Of a stretch of DNA of 64,000 nt, positions 4,625 to 19,448 are shown piece after piece. The notes below the pieces were generated by a model. The model searched no databases, had not been told where the DNA came from, and worked only from the letters and a program-made list of their open reading frames with translations. A program made the translations under genes and the position numbers. The stretch's first letter is position 1; each line of letters starts with the position of its first letter. Origin of the DNA: Erythrobacter sp. 3-20A1M (GTDB lineage Bacteria; Pseudomonadota; Alphaproteobacteria; Sphingomonadales; Sphingomonadaceae); NCBI RefSeq assembly GCF_018636735.1, contig NZ_CP045200.1, positions 620,001 to 684,000 on the forward strand. The letters are read 5' to 3'.

Positions 4625-6706
4625 GTGTCGATCGGACCCGTTATTCGCAATACCTTGCTGGCCGGTATCGCGGTCGCGGCATTCCTTTCCACGCCGCAGG
4701 CCGCGCTGGCCGATCCTCACCAAACAGGACAATCGATGACCGCTGATACGCAGACCGCCCCGCTGATTCCGCGCGAGGCGCTGTTCGGAAACCCGACGCG
4801 CGCCGGGGCGCAGATCAGCCCGGACGGGAAATACATCTCGTGGCTGGCACCCCGCGACGGCACGCTCAATATCTGGCTGGCCCCGGCTGACGACCTCTCC
4901 GCGGCGAAGCCGATGACCGCATCGACCGACCGGCCCATCCGCAGCTATTTCTGGGCACCCGACGGGCAGAGCCTGCTCTACGTGCAGGACAAGGGCGGCG
5001 ACGAGAATTTCCTGCTCTACGGTGTGAACGTCGCGACGGGTAAGGAGACCACCCTCACCCCGTTCGAAAACACGCGGGTCCAGCTGGTCGGCGCGTCGGA
5101 CACGATCAAGGACAAGGTGCTGGTCGGCCTCAACAACCGCGATCCGCAATTGCACGACGTCTACAGCCTCGATCTCAACACCGGCGAACTGACCGAGCTG
5201 ATCGAGAACGACGGCGGCTATGCCGGCTTCATGGCGGACGACAATCTCGACGTCCGCCTCGCCCTGCGGCAGAACCCGGCGGGCGGGATGGATTTCTTCA
5301 AGGTGGAGGACAACGTCGTCGCGGACGAGCCCTTCAGCTCGACCGATTTGGGCGATTCGCTGACGACCAGCCCCGCCGGCTTCACCCGCGACGGCCGGAC
5401 CATGTACTGGTACGACAGCCGGGGGCGCAACACGGCGGCGCTGATGGCGATGGACATGGCGACCGGCGAGACCCGCCTGGTGGCCGAGGACGACAAGGCC
5501 GATATCGGCGGCTCGATCCGCGACAAGGATACCGGCGAGATCGAAGCCTATTCGGTCAATTACCTCAAGACCGAATGGACCGCGCTCGACCCCGACGTGA
5601 AGGCGGCGCTCGATTTTCTGGGCAGCAAGCTAGAGGGCGAGTTCGGCGTCCAGTCGCGGACCGACGACGACCGCAAGTGGATCGTGGGCAACGATCCGGT
5701 GATCGGGCCGAGCGCGGCCTATCTCTACGATCGCGACGCCGGGACGCTGGAACAGCTCTACGTCTCGCGCCCGGAGCTGACCGGGACGCCGCTGCAACCC
5801 ATGCAGATGCTGGAGCTGACCAGTCGCGACGGGTTGACCCTGCCGACCTACCTGACCCTGCCGCCGGGCAGCGATGCCGACGGCGACGGCGTGCCCGACG
5901 CGCCGGTGCCGATGGTGCTGCTGGTGCATGGCGGGCCGTGGGCGCGCGACGCCTACGGCTTCAATTCCTATCACCAGTGGCTCGCCAATCGCGGCTATGC
6001 GGTGATGAGCGTCAATTATCGCGGCTCGACCGGCTTCGGGAAGGAGTTCATCAACGCGGCCAATCTCGAATGGTCGAAGAAGATGCACGACGACCTGATC
6101 GACGCGGTGGACTGGGCGGTCGAGAAGGGCATCGCGCCAAAGGACAAGGTCGCGATCATGGGCGGGTCCTACGGGGGCTACGCCACGCTGGTCGGCCTGA
6201 CCTATACGCCGGAAACCTTCGCCTGCGGCGTTGACATCGTCGGCCCGTCCAACCTCGAGACGCTGCTGTCCACAATTCCGCCCTATTGGAAGCCGATGGT
6301 GGCGCAGTTCCACGAGCGGATGGGCGACCCGTCCACGCCCGAAGGCCTCGCCGCGCTGAAGGCCGCATCCCCGCTCTACAAGGCGGACAAGATCGTGCGC
6401 CCGCTGCTGATCGGCCAGGGCGCGAACGATCCGCGGGTCAATCAGGCGGAAAGCGACCAGATCGTGGAGGCGATGAAGGCGAAGGACATTCCCGTGACCT
6501 ACGTCCTGTTCCCCGACGAGGGGCATGGCTTCGCCAAGCCGACCAACAACATCGCCTTCAACGCAGTGACCGAGAACTTCCTCGCCAGCTGCCTCGGCGG
6601 TCGGGCCGAACCGGTCGGAGACACGATGGAGGCATCGACCGCGCAGATCGTCGACGGCGCCGAATATGTGAAGGGCCTAGACACCGGTGACAATGTTGGA
6701 GGATAA
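4625..6706 (+). CDS. Exported S9 family prolyl oligopeptidase-type peptidase
   Basis: A serine peptidase of the dipeptidyl/acylaminoacyl peptidase group, 693 residues. The start is GTG at 4625 behind GAAGGAGAG. A signal peptide (LLAGIAVAAFLSTPQAALA) sends it to the periplasm. Residues ~60-390 form a WD/beta-propeller-like region with repeated SPDGKYISW- and DGQSLLY-type blades. The C-terminal alpha/beta hydrolase carries the nucleophile Ser515 in GGSYGGYA, an Asp in GANDPRVNQ and the His in PDEGHGF. The likely role is degradation of imported or periplasmic peptides. It appears to stand alone, followed by a short gap before an SDR gene. Confidence 0.93.
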   Translation: MSIGPVIRNTLLAGIAVAAFLSTPQAALADPHQTGQSMTADTQTAPLIPREALFGNPTRAGAQISPDGKYISWLAPRDGTLNIWLAPADDLSAAKPMTASTDRPIRSYFWAPDGQSLLYVQDKGGDENFLLYGVNVATGKETTLTPFENTRVQLVGASDTIKDKVLVGLNNRDPQLHDVYSLDLNTGELTELIENDGGYAGFMADDNLDVRLALRQNPAGGMDFFKVEDNVVADEPFSSTDLGDSLTTSPAGFTRDGRTMYWYDSRGRNTAALMAMDMATGETRLVAEDDKADIGGSIRDKDTGEIEAYSVNYLKTEWTALDPDVKAALDFLGSKLEGEFGVQSRTDDDRKWIVGNDPVIGPSAAYLYDRDAGTLEQLYVSRPELTGTPLQPMQMLELTSRDGLTLPTYLTLPPGSDADGDGVPDAPVPMVLLVHGGPWARDAYGFNSYHQWLANRGYAVMSVNYRGSTGFGKEFINAANLEWSKKMHDDLIDAVDWAVEKGIAPKDKVAIMGGSYGGYATLVGLTYTPETFACGVDIVGPSNLETLLSTIPPYWKPMVAQFHERMGDPSTPEGLAALKAASPLYKADKIVRPLLIGQGANDPRVNQAESDQIVEAMKAKDIPVTYVLFPDEGHGFAKPTNNIAFNAVTENFLASCLGGRAEPVGDTMEASTAQIVDGAEYVKGLDTGDNVGG

Positions 6707-6779: not shown

Positions 6780-7589
6780 ATGCACCCTCGCAAATCCATT
6801 TTCATTACGGGCGGAGCGTCTGGTATCGGGCGCGCCATCGCCATGCGCTTCGGGCGCGAAGGCTGGTGCGTCGGACTGGGCGATATCGACCGGCCGGGCA
6901 TGGACCAGACCTTTCGCCTGATCGGGCACGACTACATCTTCTGCTACGATCTGGATGTGCGCGACCGGTCTGCGTGGGACGAGGCGCTCGATCAATTCTC
7001 CGACGTCGCGGAAGGCCGCATCGACGTGGTCGTCAACAATGCCGGAATTCCGCTGGGCGGCATGATCGAGGAGATGACGGTCGAAGAGATCGAGCTGTGC
7101 TTCGACGTCAATCTGAAAGGCGTGTTCTTCGGCGCGCAGGCGGCGCTCCCCCACCTGCGCAAGGTCGGATCCGGCTCGTGCCTGCTCAACACCTCCAGCG
7201 CCGCCGGAATCTACGGTTCGGCGGGCGCTTCGGTCTATTCCGCGACCAAGTTCGGCGTTCGCGCCCTGACCGAGGCGCTCGACGGCGAATGGGCGCAGTA
7301 CGGCATCAAGGTTCGCGCCCTGATGCCCAGCTTCATCGACACGCCGCTGCTCGACCACGCCCCCCACGGTGGCGCGAACGAACAGATCCGCCAGCGGGTG
7401 CGCGGTGCCGGGCTGGAGATAACGCCGGTGCAGCAAGTCGCGGATGCGGCATGGCAGGCAGTCCACGGGGACAAGCTGCTGTGGCCGGTGGGCGCGACCG
7501 CGCGCAAGCTGACGACAGCGGCCCGCTGGATGCCTGGTCGCCTGCGCAAGTTCGCGCGCAAAAGAGCGCAGGCGGCCGAGGGCATTTAA
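6780..7589 (+). CDS. SDR family oxidoreductase
   Basis: A classical short-chain dehydrogenase/reductase of about 269 residues. The Rossmann cofactor loop TGGASGIGRAIA is at residues ~9-20. NNAG lies near residue 83, and the catalytic Ser...YSATK set is in NTSSAAGIYGSAGASVYSATK. The acidic residue after beta-2 (GDIDRPG) suggests NAD(H) preference. Two in-frame ATGs lie 6 bp apart; I chose the second (6780) because the AGGAG motif at 6769-6773 is correctly spaced only for it. The C-terminus is rich in basic residues. The substrate is not predictable. Confidence 0.88.
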   Translation: MHPRKSIFITGGASGIGRAIAMRFGREGWCVGLGDIDRPGMDQTFRLIGHDYIFCYDLDVRDRSAWDEALDQFSDVAEGRIDVVVNNAGIPLGGMIEEMTVEEIELCFDVNLKGVFFGAQAALPHLRKVGSGSCLLNTSSAAGIYGSAGASVYSATKFGVRALTEALDGEWAQYGIKVRALMPSFIDTPLLDHAPHGGANEQIRQRVRGAGLEITPVQQVADAAWQAVHGDKLLWPVGATARKLTTAARWMPGRLRKFARKRAQAAEGI

Positions 7590-14600: not shown

Positions 14601-16010
14601 ATGGCTTCCGCAAAAGACGTCCTGAAGCAGATCAAGGAAAACGAGGTCGAATGGGTCGACCTGCGCTTCACCGATCCCAAGGGCAAATGGCAGCACCTGA
14701 CCATGGTCGCCGGCATCCTGACCGAGGACGAGCTCGAAGACGGGCTGATGTTCGACGGCTCTTCCATCGCGGGCTGGAAGGTCATCAACGAAAGCGACAT
14801 GATCCTGAAGCCCGACCTGAACCGGGTGTACATGGACCCGTTCAGCGCGACGCCGATGATGATCGTGTTCTGCGACATCGTCGAACCGAGCACCGGTGAA
14901 TGGTACGCGCGCGACCCGCGCACCACCGCGAAGCGCGCCGAGGAATACCTCAAGTCCACGGGCATCGGCGACACCGTCTATGTCGGCCCCGAGGCGGAAT
15001 TCTTCATGTTCGACGACGTGAAGTTCGAGGATGGTTATGCCGGATCGGGCTATCGCATCGACGATATCGAGCTGCCGACCAACTCCAGCCGCGATTACGA
15101 GGCGGGCAACATGGCGCACCGTCCGCGCGCCAAGGGCGGCTATTTCCCCGTCGCCCCGGTCGACAGCGCGGTCGATATCCGTGGCGAGATGGTTTCGACC
15201 ATGATCGAGATGGGCCTCAACTGCGACAAGCATCACCACGAAGTCGCCGCCGCGCAGCACGAGCTGGGCCTGACGTTCTCCACGCTGGTGGAAACGGCCG
15301 ACAACATGCAGATCTACAAGTATGTCGTGCACCAGGTCGCGCACGCCTACGGCAAGTCGGCGACCTTCATGCCCAAGCCGATCAAGGACGATAACGGGTC
15401 GGGCATGCACACCCACATGTCGATCTGGGACGATGGCAAGCCGACCTTCGCGGGCAACGGCTATGCCGGTCTGTCGGACAACTGCCTGTATTACATCGGC
15501 GGCGTCATCAAGCATGCCAAGGCGCTGAACGCCTTCACCAACCCGACCACCAACAGCTACAAGCGGCTGGTGCCGGGTTTCGAGGCACCGGTGCTGCTCG
15601 CCTATTCGGCGCGCAACCGCTCCGCGTCGTGCCGCATCCCTTATGGTGCGGGCGACAAGGCGAAGCGCGTGGAGTTCCGCTTCCCCGACGCGATGGCCAA
15701 CCCCTATCTCGCTTATGCGGCGCTGCTGATGGCGGGCCTCGACGGGATTCAGAACAAGATCCATCCGGGCGAGGCGATGGACAAGAACCTCTACGATCTG
15801 CCGCCCGCCGAGCTGGCCGAGGTGCCGACGGTCTGCGCCAACCTGCGCGAAGCGCTGGAAAGCCTGGAGGCGGACCACGAGTTCCTGCTGAAGGGCGACG
15901 TGTTCACGAAGGACCAGATCGAGGCCTATATCGAGCTCAAGTTCGAAGACGTCGTGCGCTGGGAAACCACCCCCAGCTCGGTCGAGTTCGACATGTATTA
16001 CAGCTCTTAA
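14601..16010 (+). CDS. glnA: Glutamine synthetase type I
   Basis: Dodecameric ATP-dependent ligase making glutamine from glutamate and ammonia. 469 residues, full length. Key segments: [17 protein letters not shown], the metal-binding [24 protein letters not shown], the ATP-binding [12 protein letters not shown] and the adenylylation Tyr398 in [11 protein letters not shown]. The start ATG has GAAGGGA upstream. The gene is intact, but its last 299 bp are repeated at 18066-18364 beyond a low-GC segment, so its 3' end may have been supplied by an integrated element. A terminator follows at 16040. Confidence 0.97.
15708..16006 (+). repeat. 299-bp direct repeat, copy 1 (3' end of glnA)
   Basis: This stretch is repeated at 18066-18364 in the same orientation with two mismatches that I can see: one changes Ala to Val, the other is silent. 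Identity begins sharply at the CTC codon (15708) and ends within the last serine codon. The two copies flank the low-GC segment. Confidence 0.95.
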
Positions 16011-16039
16011 CATAAACCGGAACACGGCTGACCAGCGAT

Positions 16040-16073
16040 GGGCGTTCGGAGCGATCCGGACGCCCCAATTTTT
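16040..16073 (+). terminator. Rho-independent terminator after glnA
   Basis: A 10-bp stem, GGGCGTTCGG paired with CCGGACGCCC (one G-T pair), a 6-base loop, and a T run at 16069-16073. It lies 30 bp after the glnA stop. Confidence 0.75.
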
Positions 16074-16284
16074 CGCATAAGCGTGAAGTATGCCTTAAGC
16101 GGCCAAGGCGCGCATCGGATACCGGATACCTTTTGATATCGTTAATGACTCACCGGTTGCCCAAACGATTTCCATCGGTCACAATGTCGAAATCGCGGAA
16201 CCCATATCTTGGCAGATAGCGAAGAGCGCGCATGGCTGCGTCGCATTGCGCTCGATGCGCCCAAGAACTTCAAAAGGTGTATTA

Positions 16285-17892
16285 ATGTCCAATTTCCGTC
16301 ATCACCTAGCAATACTCGCTTTCGGCGCCGCTACAGCGAGTGTGGCAACGCCGGCATGGGCCGACTGGCGAGTTGTAGAAACCGAGCACTTCAAGTATTA
16401 TAGCGAAGCTCCGGCTGATGAATTACTCGAGACAGTAAAGCGGATGGAAACATTCGACACCTTGGTCCGTGCTCTGACTAATAACCAAAAACCCTCGAGC
16501 CCTGTAAAGGTCACAATGTTCGAGGTGGCCACGATGGATGATGTAAACCACACTTTCCCTTACCCTTCGGAGGGGGTCGGCGGTTACTATAGCAGTACAA
16601 CCGAGGGACCATTTCTTGTTACCTTCCGCAATACGCTTCGTACAGGGATGAAAAGCGCCCGAAAGGCGGCAAGGCAATCCTACGCTTGGGGGCCGGAGGT
16701 CCGCCAGCACGAGTATCTGCATCATTACATGTATCAGTATTTCAATGCTAACTATCCAAGTTGGTACTCGGAGGGATTTGCAGAATATTATGGTAGCATG
16801 CAGTTCCCGGAACCTAACATCGTTGAAATAGGGCACGCGCCGTTTTTCCGTGTCGATACTATTAGAAACGGCTCCTGGATCGATGCGAGAGAGTTGCTTA
16901 CAGCTAAATCATACGGCGACGTCAACGACGTCTCCGCCCTTTATGCCGAAGGATGGCTCCTCACGCATCTCGCGGCGCAGAACCCAGAACGTGGCACGCA
17001 ACTGCAAATGTACTTGAATTCCGTTGCCTCGGGTACCGATTATGAACAGGCAGCCAAGCAAGCGTTCGGCAATTTCGACGCGCTGAATTCGGATCTAAAA
17101 AAGCATCTCAAAAACATAAATGCAATGCGTTTATCCCTTAAGCCGATGGAACTGGGTGATTTTGAGGTTAGAGATCTGAGCCCAGTAGAAGACAAGCTGA
17201 TGCGCTACCAAGTCCGATTATATTCAGGATACGAAGTATCGGATTTGCCGCAGATCATCTCGGCTGTTCAAGCTATAAGAACTGAAGATCCCGACAATCT
17301 TATGGGGCTTGGTATTCAGGCTAAGCTTCAGAACCTTGACGGAAAGTATGCAGATGCTCTGGCGAGTTCCAAGCGTTTGCTTGAGCTTGACGACAATAAC
17401 GTCATTGGGCTGACGGAAAAAGGTAAGGCCATGGTGGGATTGCTCGACAGTTCCGCGAACGAAGCGGCGTGGGAGGAGGCTAGGGCTCCGTTGCTCGCAG
17501 CAATAGAAGCTTCGAAGACCGCAACAGAGCCCCGGGTCGCCTTTTTCAAATCATACCTCACTCAGGGCATCCTACCGTCAGTTGCCGCGCAAAACTATAT
17601 GGTTCAGGCTTTCGATCTTTTGCCGCAAAACGACGAAATCCGTTATCTGGTCGCTAGGGATTTCGAACAGCGCGGTATGCTGGATGATGCGGTTGCGGTC
17701 ATAGAACCTGCTGCTTACGGAACCTTCGATGGCGACGAAGGCAAGAAGCGCAGGCGCGAGCGCCTCATGAAGCGATTCGCCGAGAAGTATACGAACATCC
17801 AGAACTACGAGAGCCCGCTTGAAATGCTAAATCGTCTTCGAGAAAAGCAAGGCAAGACTATAGAGGCTGATCCCGAGGTCGATAGCGAGTGA
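16285..17892 (+). CDS. Exported HExxH metalloprotease-like protein, low GC
   Basis: A 535-residue protein. The start at 16285 (MSNFRHHLAILAFG) has AAGGTG upstream and gives a clean signal peptide ending at ATPAWA. Residues ~20-270 look like a DUF1570/gluzincin-type domain: VVETEHFKYYSEAP at the front, then RQHEYLHHYMYQYF with the zinc motif HEYLH, and WYSEGFAEYYG with the downstream Glu expected in this clan. The C-terminal half is helical and reads like degenerate TPR units (KYADALASSKRLLELDDNNVIGLTEKGKA). It is the only gene of the segment between the glnA repeats. Substrate and role are unknown; export suggests a periplasmic protein. Confidence 0.75.
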   Translation: MSNFRHHLAILAFGAATASVATPAWADWRVVETEHFKYYSEAPADELLETVKRMETFDTLVRALTNNQKPSSPVKVTMFEVATMDDVNHTFPYPSEGVGGYYSSTTEGPFLVTFRNTLRTGMKSARKAARQSYAWGPEVRQHEYLHHYMYQYFNANYPSWYSEGFAEYYGSMQFPEPNIVEIGHAPFFRVDTIRNGSWIDARELLTAKSYGDVNDVSALYAEGWLLTHLAAQNPERGTQLQMYLNSVASGTDYEQAAKQAFGNFDALNSDLKKHLKNINAMRLSLKPMELGDFEVRDLSPVEDKLMRYQVRLYSGYEVSDLPQIISAVQAIRTEDPDNLMGLGIQAKLQNLDGKYADALASSKRLLELDDNNVIGLTEKGKAMVGLLDSSANEAAWEEARAPLLAAIEASKTATEPRVAFFKSYLTQGILPSVAAQNYMVQAFDLLPQNDEIRYLVARDFEQRGMLDDAVAVIEPAAYGTFDGDEGKKRRRERLMKRFAEKYTNIQNYESPLEMLNRLREKQGKTIEADPEVDSE

Positions 17893-18065
17893 GGTTGTCT
17901 CACATTCGCTATTCAGAAGACTTTATGATCTGAGTGGAGAATCTCCCCAGCGCCTACAGGGTCCCTCTATTTCGGATCTTGCAGGTCGCCTATAGGGTAA
18001 CGATGGTGAGCGTTCATTGACTATAGCGACTGCGTGGTCCGTCCGCACTTCGAGCGTCGTTACTC

Positions 18066-18364
18066 CTCGCTTATGCGGCGCTGCTGATGGCGGGCCTCGA
18101 CGGGATTCAGAACAAGATCCATCCGGGCGAGGCGATGGACAAGAACCTCTACGATCTGCCGCCCGTCGAGCTGGCCGAGGTGCCGACGGTCTGCGCCAAC
18201 CTGCGCGAAGCGCTGGAAAGCCTGGAGGCGGACCACGAGTTCCTGCTGAAGGGCGACGTGTTCACGAAGGACCAGATCGAGGCCTATATCGAGCTCAAGT
18301 TCGAAGACGTCGTGCGCTGGGAAACCACCCCCAGCTCGGTCGAATTCGACATGTATTACAGCTC
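18066..18364 (+). repeat. 299-bp direct repeat, copy 2
   Basis: Second copy of the repeat at 15708-16006, same orientation, two mismatches. The sequence 5' of it (to 18065) has no similarity to glnA. 3' of it the sequence also differs from that after copy 1: a different terminator follows. Confidence 0.95.
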
Positions 18365-18368
18365 GTAA
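18066..18368 (+). pseudogene. Truncated 3' fragment of glnA
   Basis: Encodes the last 100 residues of glutamine synthetase in frame (from [15 protein letters not shown] to FDMYYSS), with a single Ala-to-Val change in LPPVELAEV. It lacks the N-terminal domain and most of the active site, so it cannot be an enzyme alone. An ATG at 18087 could start a 93-residue product, but there is no ribosome site worth noting. It is best read as the displaced original end of glnA. Confidence 0.9.
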
Positions 18369-18390
18369 GCGCGGGCCTCCCGATACTGAA

Positions 18391-18426
18391 AAGGGGGCGC
18401 CGGAGTCGATCCGGCGCCCCCTTTTT
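18391..18426 (+). terminator. Rho-independent terminator after the glnA fragment
   Basis: A 13-bp perfect stem, AAGGGGGCGCCGG with CCGGCGCCCCCTT, a 7-base loop and a run of five T. It is stronger than the terminator after full-length glnA and is probably the ancestral glnA terminator. Confidence 0.85.
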
Positions 18427-18448: not shown

Positions 18449-19105
18449 TCAGCGCGGTTTCAGCAAGCCGCGCGTGGCACACACGCCGAACGCGGCGACG
18501 AGCAGCACCGCCCACAGCATGGTGAGCCAATCGAGTGCGGCCGGACCGGTGATCATGCCGAGATGCGCCAGCAGGGTCCATGTCCCGCCGGTCAGCACTG
18601 TCAGATAGAACGCCATCGCCGCGGCTTCCCGCGAAATCGCGCGCATGAACTCGTCCTGCCGTTTCGCCGTCCCCACGGATGTTATTACGAATATCAGCAT
18701 GGCGATCGCGAACCCCGCCAGCGCGACGGGAGCGGCTATCGGACCCGCCGGGGCTGCCAGCGCCGCGATCATCAGCGCGATCCCCGCCGCCATCATGCCC
18801 GCCGAGGCGAAAGCCAGCTGCACGCGCTGCTCGCGCAGTTCGTCGCTGTCCTCGACATTCAGGAAACGGGCACCCAAGTTCGGGATGAACAGGCCCAAGC
18901 CGAGGGCCAGCCCCGTGACGATGTAGACGAGGGCGACCAGCCCGGCGATCTCCCCGCTTTTACCCAACTGGTCGAACGTCCCGTCGACGAGCGACAGGAA
19001 GAGGAACGACGAGAGCCCGCCGCACACGGCGCCCACCCCCAGCGAAAACGCGAACTTGCGCCATTTGCGGACTTCTCCGCTGGTGCGATCTTCAATCTTC
19101 ATCAT
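18449..19105 (-). CDS. Multi-pass membrane protein paired with XRE regulator
   Basis: 218 residues with about six transmembrane segments (for example AVCGGLSSFLFLSLV, IAGLVALVYIVTGLALGLGLF, GMMAAGIALMIAALAAPA, AFAIAMLIFVITSVGTA-type and LTMLWAVLLVAAFGV helices). A cytoplasmic loop EDSDELREQRVQ follows the second helix. It overlaps the upstream XRE gene by 14 bp, so it is co-transcribed and likely under that regulator. Pairs of a tiny XRE repressor with a membrane protein are common in this group; the function of the membrane partner is not known. Confidence 0.75.
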   Translation of the reverse strand: MMKIEDRTSGEVRKWRKFAFSLGVGAVCGGLSSFLFLSLVDGTFDQLGKSGEIAGLVALVYIVTGLALGLGLFIPNLGARFLNVEDSDELREQRVQLAFASAGMMAAGIALMIAALAAPAGPIAAPVALAGFAIAMLIFVITSVGTAKRQDEFMRAISREAAAMAFYLTVLTGGTWTLLAHLGMITGPAALDWLTMLWAVLLVAAFGVCATRGLLKPR

Positions 19106-19307
19106 CTTGCGGCTCCCAGTCGTCCTTGAAAAGATCCGGCACGCTCACGCCGAACAGCTTCGCCATGCGCAGCGCCAATGGCAGCGAGGGATCGTATTTG
19201 TCCGTTTCGACGGCGTTGATGGTCTGGCGCGAAACGCCCAGCCGGCGGGCCAGCTCTCCCTGGCTCCATCCCCGCCGCTCCCGCTGTTCCTTCAGCATGT
19301 TACGCAT
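19092..19307 (-). CDS. Small XRE-family HTH regulator
   Basis: A DNA-binding protein of about 71 residues made almost only of one helix-turn-helix domain: LKEQRERRGWSQGELARRLGVSRQTINAVETDKYDPSLPLALRMAKLFGV is the complete five-helix fold, here described in pieces by its signature WSQGELARRLGVSRQTI. The tail is acidic (PQDDED). The start at MRNMLKEQ (19307) fits the family; the frame is open nine residues further. A large palindrome just upstream is a probable autoregulatory operator. Confidence 0.88.
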   Translation of the reverse strand: MRNMLKEQRERRGWSQGELARRLGVSRQTINAVETDKYDPSLPLALRMAKLFGVSVPDLFKDDWEPQDDED

Positions 19308-19327
19308 TGGTCCGCGATCTCCCTTGC

Positions 19328-19381
19328 CTGACAAGAACTCTTTACTGACAAGAGTTCTTGACTGTCAAGAGCTCTTGTCAG
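19328..19381. promoter_or_regulatory. Palindromic operator upstream of the XRE gene
   Basis: A 37-bp near-perfect palindrome at 19345-19381, with arms CTGACAAGAG and CTCTTGTCAG, an inner pair TCTTGAC/GTCAAGA, and centre at 19363. A further half site, CTGACAAGA, lies at 19328, 17 bp before the first arm. Such stacked sites suggest cooperative binding of two repressor dimers. It lies between the XRE gene (minus) and the exported protein gene (plus), so it may control both. Confidence 0.7.
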
Positions 19382-19448
19382 ACGAGGTTTGCAAGTTCCG
19401 GAACCATCCCGCTCGAGGCCGCGTTGCGGAGTCAAAGGAGTCTAACAA

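What the first reader, a model, noticed from the sequence alone, without database searches (positions are those of the whole stretch)
15708..18426. glnA 3' end duplicated around a low-GC segment: probable integration into a housekeeping gene
Seen: the last 299 bp of glnA (15708-16006) recur at 18066-18364 with two mismatches, followed by a different, stronger terminator. Between them lies ~2 kb of clearly lower GC with one gene. Known: phage 21 and e14 enter the 3' end of E. coli icd and replace it with their own copy, leaving the original tail on the far side. Inference: the same happened here at glnA, or a plasmid carrying a glnA tail integrated by a single crossover. No integrase remains in view, so this may be a deleted remnant, or a satellite moved by another element.
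Basis: partly seen in the sequence, partly recalled or inferred. Interest (0 to 1): 0.78.

Follow-up and report, generated by a model that had tools for sequence, protein, structure and literature searches.

The report
Gene-tail scar from recombination at glnA
A probably foreign gene for a secreted, protease-like protein sits just after the bacterium's glutamine synthetase gene and is followed by a copied tail of that gene, most likely the scar of an ordinary homologous crossover with one sloppy join rather than of a phage-like element.

Summary
The repeat is real: the last 303 bp of glnA (15708-16010) recur at 18066-18368 with three mismatches, around 2,055 bp of low-GC DNA with one gene for an exported HExxH/TPR protein. 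glnA is intact. In 9 of 9 congeners glnA is followed directly by a terminator and the genes seen here after copy 2, so the copy-2 side is the original site and the protease segment probably the newcomer. A phage 21/e14-type integration is not supported: no integrase was found, and relatives of the protease sit directly behind a glnA without tail repeat in four other lineages. Two further loci carry repeats of the glnA 3' region around cargo (G242, tail plus terminator; Erythrobacter ECS31B5, terminator only); the three repeats start at different points (303 and 107 bp before the end of the stop codon, 20 bp after it), unlike a fixed recombinase core. In G242 the structure is visibly two alleles of one locus in tandem, joined illegitimately. 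The best reading is one homologous crossover in glnA plus one illegitimate joint, as when trimmed, recircularised DNA integrates by single crossover (documented at E. coli lacZ). It is a new instance of known recombination, at an accessory-gene exchange site.

The parts
14601..16010 (+). glnA, intact (469 aa, type I glutamine synthetase)
15708..16010 (+). repeat copy 1: last 303 bp of the functional glnA
16040..16072 (+). terminator 1, a glnA-type hairpin (CGGAGCGATCCGG) plus T run; probably the incoming side
   Evidence: motif class within 120 bp after glnA in 24 of 125 loci (window included), against 0.0055 per 120 bp elsewhere in the same loci
16285..17892 (+). cargo: exported protein with HExxH metalloprotease-like N-terminal part and TPR C-terminal part (535 aa), low GC
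17893..18065 (+). 173-bp low-GC spacer of unknown origin, ends at the inferred illegitimate joint
   Evidence: no significant match
18065..18066 (.). inferred illegitimate joint between donor spacer and glnA codon 370
   Evidence: sequences next to the joint share nothing obvious; donor continuation unknown
18066..18368 (+). repeat copy 2: displaced glnA tail, no full gene
18388..18426 (+). terminator 2, at the position held by the glnA terminator in congeners
18449..19105 (-). 218-aa protein, no Pfam or NCBIfam family; directly follows glnA in congeners
19092..19334 (-). Cro/C1-type HTH regulator, conserved partner

Best explanation
Incoming DNA that carried a glnA 3' end, its own glnA-type terminator, the protease gene and 173 bp beyond it entered this glnA locus by one homologous crossover inside the glnA tail and one illegitimate joint. 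The simplest form is a linear fragment whose glnA end was trimmed back to codon 370, whose two ends were joined into a 2,358-bp circle (joint at 18065/18066), and which then integrated by a single RecA-type crossover within the 303 bp. This leaves an intact glnA, terminator 1, the protease, and the displaced glnA tail with the original terminator and downstream genes. Shown here: the anatomy, the empty site in congeners, the lack of an integrase, and in genome G242 a tandem of two alleles of the same locus with a short joint. Inferred: that the protease is the newcomer, the circle, the trimming, the crossover position, and a donor of the same or a very close species. The protease is accessory cargo of an interval behind glnA in which single genes come and go.
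For: Empty site in 9 of 9 congeners. glnA-to-218-aa-gene gap: 64-140 bp in 17 of the 31 loci (of 125) where that gene was found, 0.7-5 kb in 14 of 31, the 14 including the window and three loci chosen by me (L099, L102, L213). Protease next to glnA without a glnA-tail repeat in 4 other loci: Tsuneonella litorea (L098), Erythrobacter sp. ECS31B5 (L099), an uncultured Erythrobacter (L102), G142 (L095). Patchy: 1 of 11 genomes of the T. litorea genus at E 1e-60, 1 of 10 of the window's genus. Terminator 1 is of a class enriched after glnA. G242: last 107 bp of glnA plus terminator (163 bp, 90%) repeated; the genes after the two copies both match the same gene in relatives L246, L249, L254 (29-49% identity); the insert ends in 75 bp homologous (82%) to the 3' end of the native 218-aa gene, joined to the glnA tail with a 6-base overlap. 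There 8 of 10 tail differences are at third codon positions (P = 0.0034 if random), so the two tails diverged as working genes. Tail 1 and the native gene end match relative L254 at 94% and 94%, tail 2 and the remnant at 88% and 79%, as a single crossover beyond the tail would give. Literature: in E. coli, 56 of 60 Lac- recombinants from linearised plasmid with lacZ-end homology gave the PCR product diagnostic for a duplication of part of lacZ; 14 were sequenced (109-950 bp), and the authors inferred a single crossover of a circle lacking part of the lacZ end (PMC3240628, section 12).
Against: The two tails in the window differ by 1% while the nearest of 104 other tails differs by 39 of 303 bases (12.9%), so a donor from another sampled species cannot have supplied the tail unless gene conversion later homogenised the copies. 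Foreignness of the cargo rests on low GC and patchy presence, but low GC is partly a trait of this protein group: relatives have GC 0.54-0.67 and one paralogue in this genome has GC 0.544. No donor with terminator 1 and this protease was found; the closest protease is 67% identical. Two of the five closest relatives (E. cryptus L100, L101) have no glnA in the 5-kb flanks held. The spacer matches nothing. The G242 direction rests on about 100 bp, and copy 2 could have drifted. Such scars are rare: 2 of 397 family genomes have a local second glnA tail at E 1e-6.
Confidence: 0.6

Rival explanations
1. Linear homology-facilitated illegitimate recombination (HFIR), perhaps between sister chromatids: the donor end crosses over near the glnA stop codon on one chromatid and its other end is joined illegitimately to glnA codon 370 on the sister, duplicating the recipient's own tail.
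For: Explains near-identical tails with an unrelated sequence directly after the stop; 2 of 3 mismatches fall in the last 25 of 303 bp (P = 0.019, interval chosen after seeing the data). HFIR is proposed for displaced effector 3' ends in Vibrio T6SS clusters (PMC5361080, passages), and interchromatid integration makes tandem duplications in pneumococcus (PMC3784515, passages).
Against: HFIR products are described with a deletion, not a duplication (PMC3240628, passage and section 12); in G242 the upstream tail looks native and the downstream tail less so, the reverse of the simple prediction.
Confidence: 0.2
2. Local tandem duplication of a glnA-protease segment followed by loss of one protease and replacement of a terminator.
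For: Tail copies are nearly identical and adjacent; glnA-protease adjacency is found in 4 other loci.
Against: Needs extra steps; the two terminators share only the hairpin type; 9 of 9 congeners have no protease at glnA; the G242 tails diverged under coding constraint.
Confidence: 0.1
3. Site-specific integration of a phage satellite or other element at the glnA 3' end, as with phage 21/e14 at icd, with the integrase since lost.
For: Intact gene upstream, displaced tail downstream, empty site in relatives.
Against: No integrase; different start points in three cases, though these are different genera and could be different elements; cargo next to glnA without tail repeat elsewhere; no relative of the cargo in viral contigs or plasmids.
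Confidence: 0.07
4. Assembly artefact.
For: Long near-exact repeats can be produced by assemblers.
Against: Three substitutions between the copies, different flanks, one contig.
Confidence: 0.02

Closest known systems
Single-crossover integration of trimmed, recircularised DNA at lacZ (PMC3240628; section 12 and passages read)
   Same: Foreign DNA flanked by the gene end and a partial duplicate of that end; 109-950 bp in 14 sequenced clones there, 303 bp here
   Different: Laboratory plasmid versus a natural chromosomal locus; the circle was inferred there too and cannot be seen here
Displaced effector 3' ends and orphan immunity genes in Vibrio T6SS clusters (PMC5361080, passages); Rhs orphan 3' regions as cited there
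   Same: A constant upstream part anchors the exchange; an old 3' part is pushed downstream by the new module
   Different: Housekeeping gene with unrelated accessory cargo; no toxin-immunity logic; no serial array seen
Phage 21/e14 at icd (recalled; one search listed no paper)
   Same: Gene kept intact, old tail displaced downstream
   Different: No integrase, no fixed core, cargo also next to glnA without a tail repeat
Small variable segments between backbone genes attributed largely to illegitimate recombination (PMC2884548, passages)
   Same: Small accessory segment at a conserved junction; homology-assisted illegitimate joining is proposed
   Different: Here the scar of the event is still readable

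Membership tests
Single-crossover (Campbell-type) integration of homologous DNA | Insert flanked by direct repeats of the homologous segment | tested here: met
   303 bp, 99%
Single-crossover (Campbell-type) integration of homologous DNA | Uninterrupted site in relatives | tested here: met
   9 of 9 congeners
Single-crossover (Campbell-type) integration of homologous DNA | Circular donor molecule | not testable with these tools
   only the product is visible
Homology-facilitated illegitimate recombination (strict) | Illegitimate joint with little or no homology at one end | tested here: inconclusive
   window: nothing obvious shared next to the joint, donor unknown; G242: 6-base overlap
Homology-facilitated illegitimate recombination (strict) | Deletion of recipient DNA at the joint | tested here: not met
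   a duplication instead; gene order of the congeners is kept
Site-specific integration into a gene 3' end (icd type) | Integrase gene in the element | tested here: not met
   one long cargo ORF, no recombinase family hit
Site-specific integration into a gene 3' end (icd type) | Same crossover core in different insertions | tested here: not met
   repeat starts 303 and 107 bp before the end of the stop and 20 bp after it in three loci of different genera
Site-specific integration into a gene 3' end (icd type) | Element or attP-like glnA tail found elsewhere | tested here: inconclusive
   protease: none in plasmids or viral contigs. glnA tail: 9 phage records, 4 annotated glutamine synthetase, 5 unannotated and not inspected; 1 viral contig at first, a prophage edge without tail repeat in the part held

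The most novel reading that the evidence does not exclude
The interval behind glnA in this family is an integrase-free exchange site for single accessory genes, fed by chromosomal fragments that share glnA, and the rare repeats (window, G242, and a terminator version in ECS31B5) are natural fossils of trimmed-and-circularised fragments captured additively, so that two alleles of one locus end up in tandem.
Probability: 0.35. Interest if true: 0.5.

Novelty: new member of a known kind. Interest (0 to 1): 0.35.

Why it matters
It shows that an icd-like picture (intact gene, inserted DNA, displaced tail) need not mean a mobile element. The same anatomy can come from plain homologous exchange with one illegitimate joint, a route seen in laboratory E. 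coli. Loci such as G242, where both alleles remain side by side, could give a way to measure how often that route adds genes in nature.

Tried and rejected
Site-specific element: searched phage records with the glnA tail (9 records, 4 annotated as glutamine synthetase, 5 unannotated, not inspected), plasmids with the protease (none at 1e-10), viral contigs with the protease alignment (123 pattern matches, 0 relatives) and with the glnA tail (1 locus). That locus, fetched again with more flank, begins inside glnA and runs into phage-like genes (read by eye) with no tail repeat in the 10.8 kb held of 22 kb; the two other loci hold a long glnA frame some kilobases from an integrase-like frame (read by eye). 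This does not support the idea for the window but shows prophages can lie near glnA elsewhere.

Shared cassette boundary: the 173-bp spacer after the protease and the 168-bp spacer in ECS31B5 are not similar (score 16, shuffle mean 15.7). The stretches before the protease are marginally similar (9 of 300 shuffles reach the score).

Other genomes with two glnA-tail hits (G357, G020, G298, G325, G327) were checked: G357 two genes with long open frames on two contigs, G325 the same score and position on two contigs, G298 and G327 a second, remote hit (36-37%), G020 one gene split over contig ends with an identical 141-bp overlap. Only G242 is a local tail repeat.

Repeats also flagged in L200, L202 and L233 start 70, 111 and 158 bp after glnA, do not include its tail, and were not counted.

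The fold search gave TPR matches at the top and does not test the metalloprotease part.
Full report
OBSERVATION. The window is bases 620001-684000 of a 3,116,220-base single-contig genome. glnA (14601-16010) is intact and matches the glutamine synthetase families. Its last 303 bp, stop codon included, recur at 18066-18368 with three mismatches, the only second copy found in the genome. Between them is a low-GC segment with one long gene, 16285-17892. Both copies are followed by hairpin terminators, -24.3 and -35.4 kcal/mol.

WHICH SIDE IS ORIGINAL. In 9 of 9 genomes placed in the same genus, the match to a minus-strand 218-aa gene begins 79-140 bp after the glnA stop and the HTH gene follows, as in the window after copy 2. 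None of the nine has a close relative of the protease: five have hits at E below 1e-20, all 24-29% identical and away from glnA, four have none. Contig lengths suggest that two of the nine are Alteriqipengyuania abyssalis and Citromicrobium bathyomarinum (inference). So copy 2 with terminator 2 keeps the old site, and terminator 1 with the protease is probably the newcomer. Terminator 1 is nevertheless a glnA-type terminator: its motif class lies within 120 bp after glnA in 24 of 125 loci (the window included), against 0.0055 per 120 bp in the rest of the same loci. The insert thus looks like another glnA allele's 3' flank, not like anonymous DNA.

THE CARGO. The protein starts like a signal peptide (by eye). 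In an alignment of 21 sequences H142, E143, H146 (HExxH) and E163 are invariant. The C-terminal half is TPR-like; no family passes its cut-off in Pfam or NCBIfam. An exported zinc-protease-like protein is the likely identity; activity is not shown. Two remote paralogues exist in the genome (25-26%). Of 397 family genomes, 45 including the window's own have a match at E below 1e-45; the closest others are 67%, 58% and 44% identical. One search kept the best 80 of 179 named relatives; in 3 of these 80, glnA lies beside the protease: Tsuneonella litorea, Erythrobacter sp. ECS31B5 and an uncultured Erythrobacter; G142 makes a fourth. None of the four has a glnA-tail repeat. Two other close relatives (E. 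cryptus L100, 64%; L101, 58%) show no glnA in the 5-kb flanks held, and in L100 the protease lies beyond the 218-aa and HTH genes. In the genus of G391, which contig length identifies with T. litorea, 1 of 11 genomes has the protease at E 1e-60. The gene comes and goes. Its low GC suggests a foreign origin, but relatives range from 0.54 to 0.67 and one paralogue in this genome has 0.544, so composition alone is weak evidence.

THE SITE. I took glnA downstream regions from 120 family genomes: 119 from the list or the congeners, chosen by glnA similarity or kinship without regard to repeats, and G242, chosen because it had two tail hits. Three pieces are shorter than the rest because of contig ends. 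With the window and four protease loci this makes 125. Where the 218-aa gene was found (31 loci), it lies 64-140 bp from glnA in 17 and 0.7-5 kb away in 14. Ten proteins from eight of these 14 gaps gave two Na/Ca exchangers, DUF417, TetR, CHAT-TPR, autotransporter, phage-type lysozyme and three without a family, but no recombinase; the cargo of L312, L318 and L331 was not scanned. The distance from glnA to the tamB-like gene, found in 88 of 125 loci, ranges from 84 to 6,005 bp. This is an accessory-gene site.

OTHER SCARS. A repeat of the glnA tail or its terminator around cargo was found in 3 of 125 loci: the window, G242 and ECS31B5, all three examined for a reason; in 0 of the 119 unselected ones. 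In the wider set 2 of 397 genomes have a local second glnA tail at E 1e-6, a threshold that misses short or terminator-only repeats. In ECS31B5 only the terminator is repeated (56 bp, 96%), around its protease. In G242 the last 107 bp of glnA and its terminator (163 bp, 90%) are repeated. The genes after the two copies both match one and the same gene in relatives L246, L249 and L254. The insert ends in 75 bp homologous (82%) to the 3' end of the native 218-aa gene, which runs into the glnA tail with a 6-base overlap. That is the same locus twice: two alleles in tandem with an illegitimate joint. Eight of ten tail differences are third-position, so both tails were working genes for most of their divergence. 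Against the relative L254, tail 1 is 94% and tail 2 is 88% identical, and the native gene end is 94% and the remnant 79%: the outer parts look native and the middle looks foreign. A single crossover of a circularised fragment predicts this; simple linear HFIR predicts the reverse for the tails. Drift in copy 2 could also lower its identity, so this is support, not proof. None of 29 other genus loci examined with G242 has a glnA-tail or terminator repeat (one short repeat in L259 starts 229 bp after glnA).

MECHANISM. The repeat starts at a different point in each case (303 and 107 bp before the end of the stop, 20 bp after it), which one site-specific recombinase would not do, although three genera could hold three elements. 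In E. coli, linearised plasmid DNA with homology only to the lacZ end gave 60 Lac- recombinants, of which 56 yielded the PCR product for duplication of part of lacZ; 14 were sequenced (109-950 bp), explained by trimming, recircularisation and single crossover (PMC3240628, section 12). The window and G242 have that structure. Related natural cases are the displaced 3' ends in Vibrio T6SS clusters, for which HFIR was proposed (PMC5361080, passages); a 3,276-bp duplication without flanking repeats, of unclear mechanism, was seen in pneumococcus (PMC3784515, passages). ComEC- and DprA-family genes are present here, but the same searches also hit E. coli, so competence is not shown.

WHAT DOES NOT FIT. 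The window's tails differ by 1%, while the nearest of 104 other tails differs by 12.9%. So the donor tail came from the same or a very close species, or the copies were later homogenised; if the cargo is foreign, at least two steps are needed. No parental allele was found. Two of three mismatches lie in the last 25 bp (P = 0.019 for an interval chosen afterwards), which would suit a crossover just upstream, but three events are few. The protease could also be an old resident, with the protease-less allele as the incoming one; the anatomy alone cannot tell.

NOVELTY. Searches (listings only) showed no paper on glnA as such a site; that is a narrow search. The mechanism is known; the locus and the G242 tandem are new examples. 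Names such as argC, RcnB and fasciclin for neighbours in my scripts are my labels, from no call.

Noticed in passing
L213 (G242:C17:71528-78028, minus strand): Tandem of two alleles of the glnA downstream locus: repeated glnA tail and terminator, two related cargo genes, and a 75-bp remnant of the next gene at the joint.
   Followed up: yes
L099 (Erythrobacter sp. ECS31B5), 4755-4810 and 6788-6842: 56-bp, 96% direct repeat of the glnA terminator on both sides of the protease.
   Followed up: partly
19322-19387: Large imperfect inverted repeat (32-nt arms, 2-nt gap) upstream of the HTH gene; a core of about 55 bp matches several congeners in both orientations. Perhaps the operator of the HTH regulator.
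   Followed up: no
L343 (IMGVR_UViG_2778261440_000002): Viral contig that begins inside glnA (last 266 codons) and continues into phage-like genes about 130 bp after the stop (read by eye): a prophage edge beside glnA in another lineage.
   Followed up: partly
L098 and L100, after the protease: The protease seems to be followed by a lysozyme-like reading frame in T. litorea and perhaps E. cryptus (read by eye); a phage-type lysozyme is also cargo behind glnA in L297.
   Followed up: no
L233 (G365:C11): 93-bp, 92% direct repeat at +158 and +475 after glnA, not involving the glnA tail.
   Followed up: no
G357:C6:92916-93212 and C66:160309-160605: Two glnA genes with long open frames on separate contigs, tails each 80% identical to the window's.
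   Followed up: no
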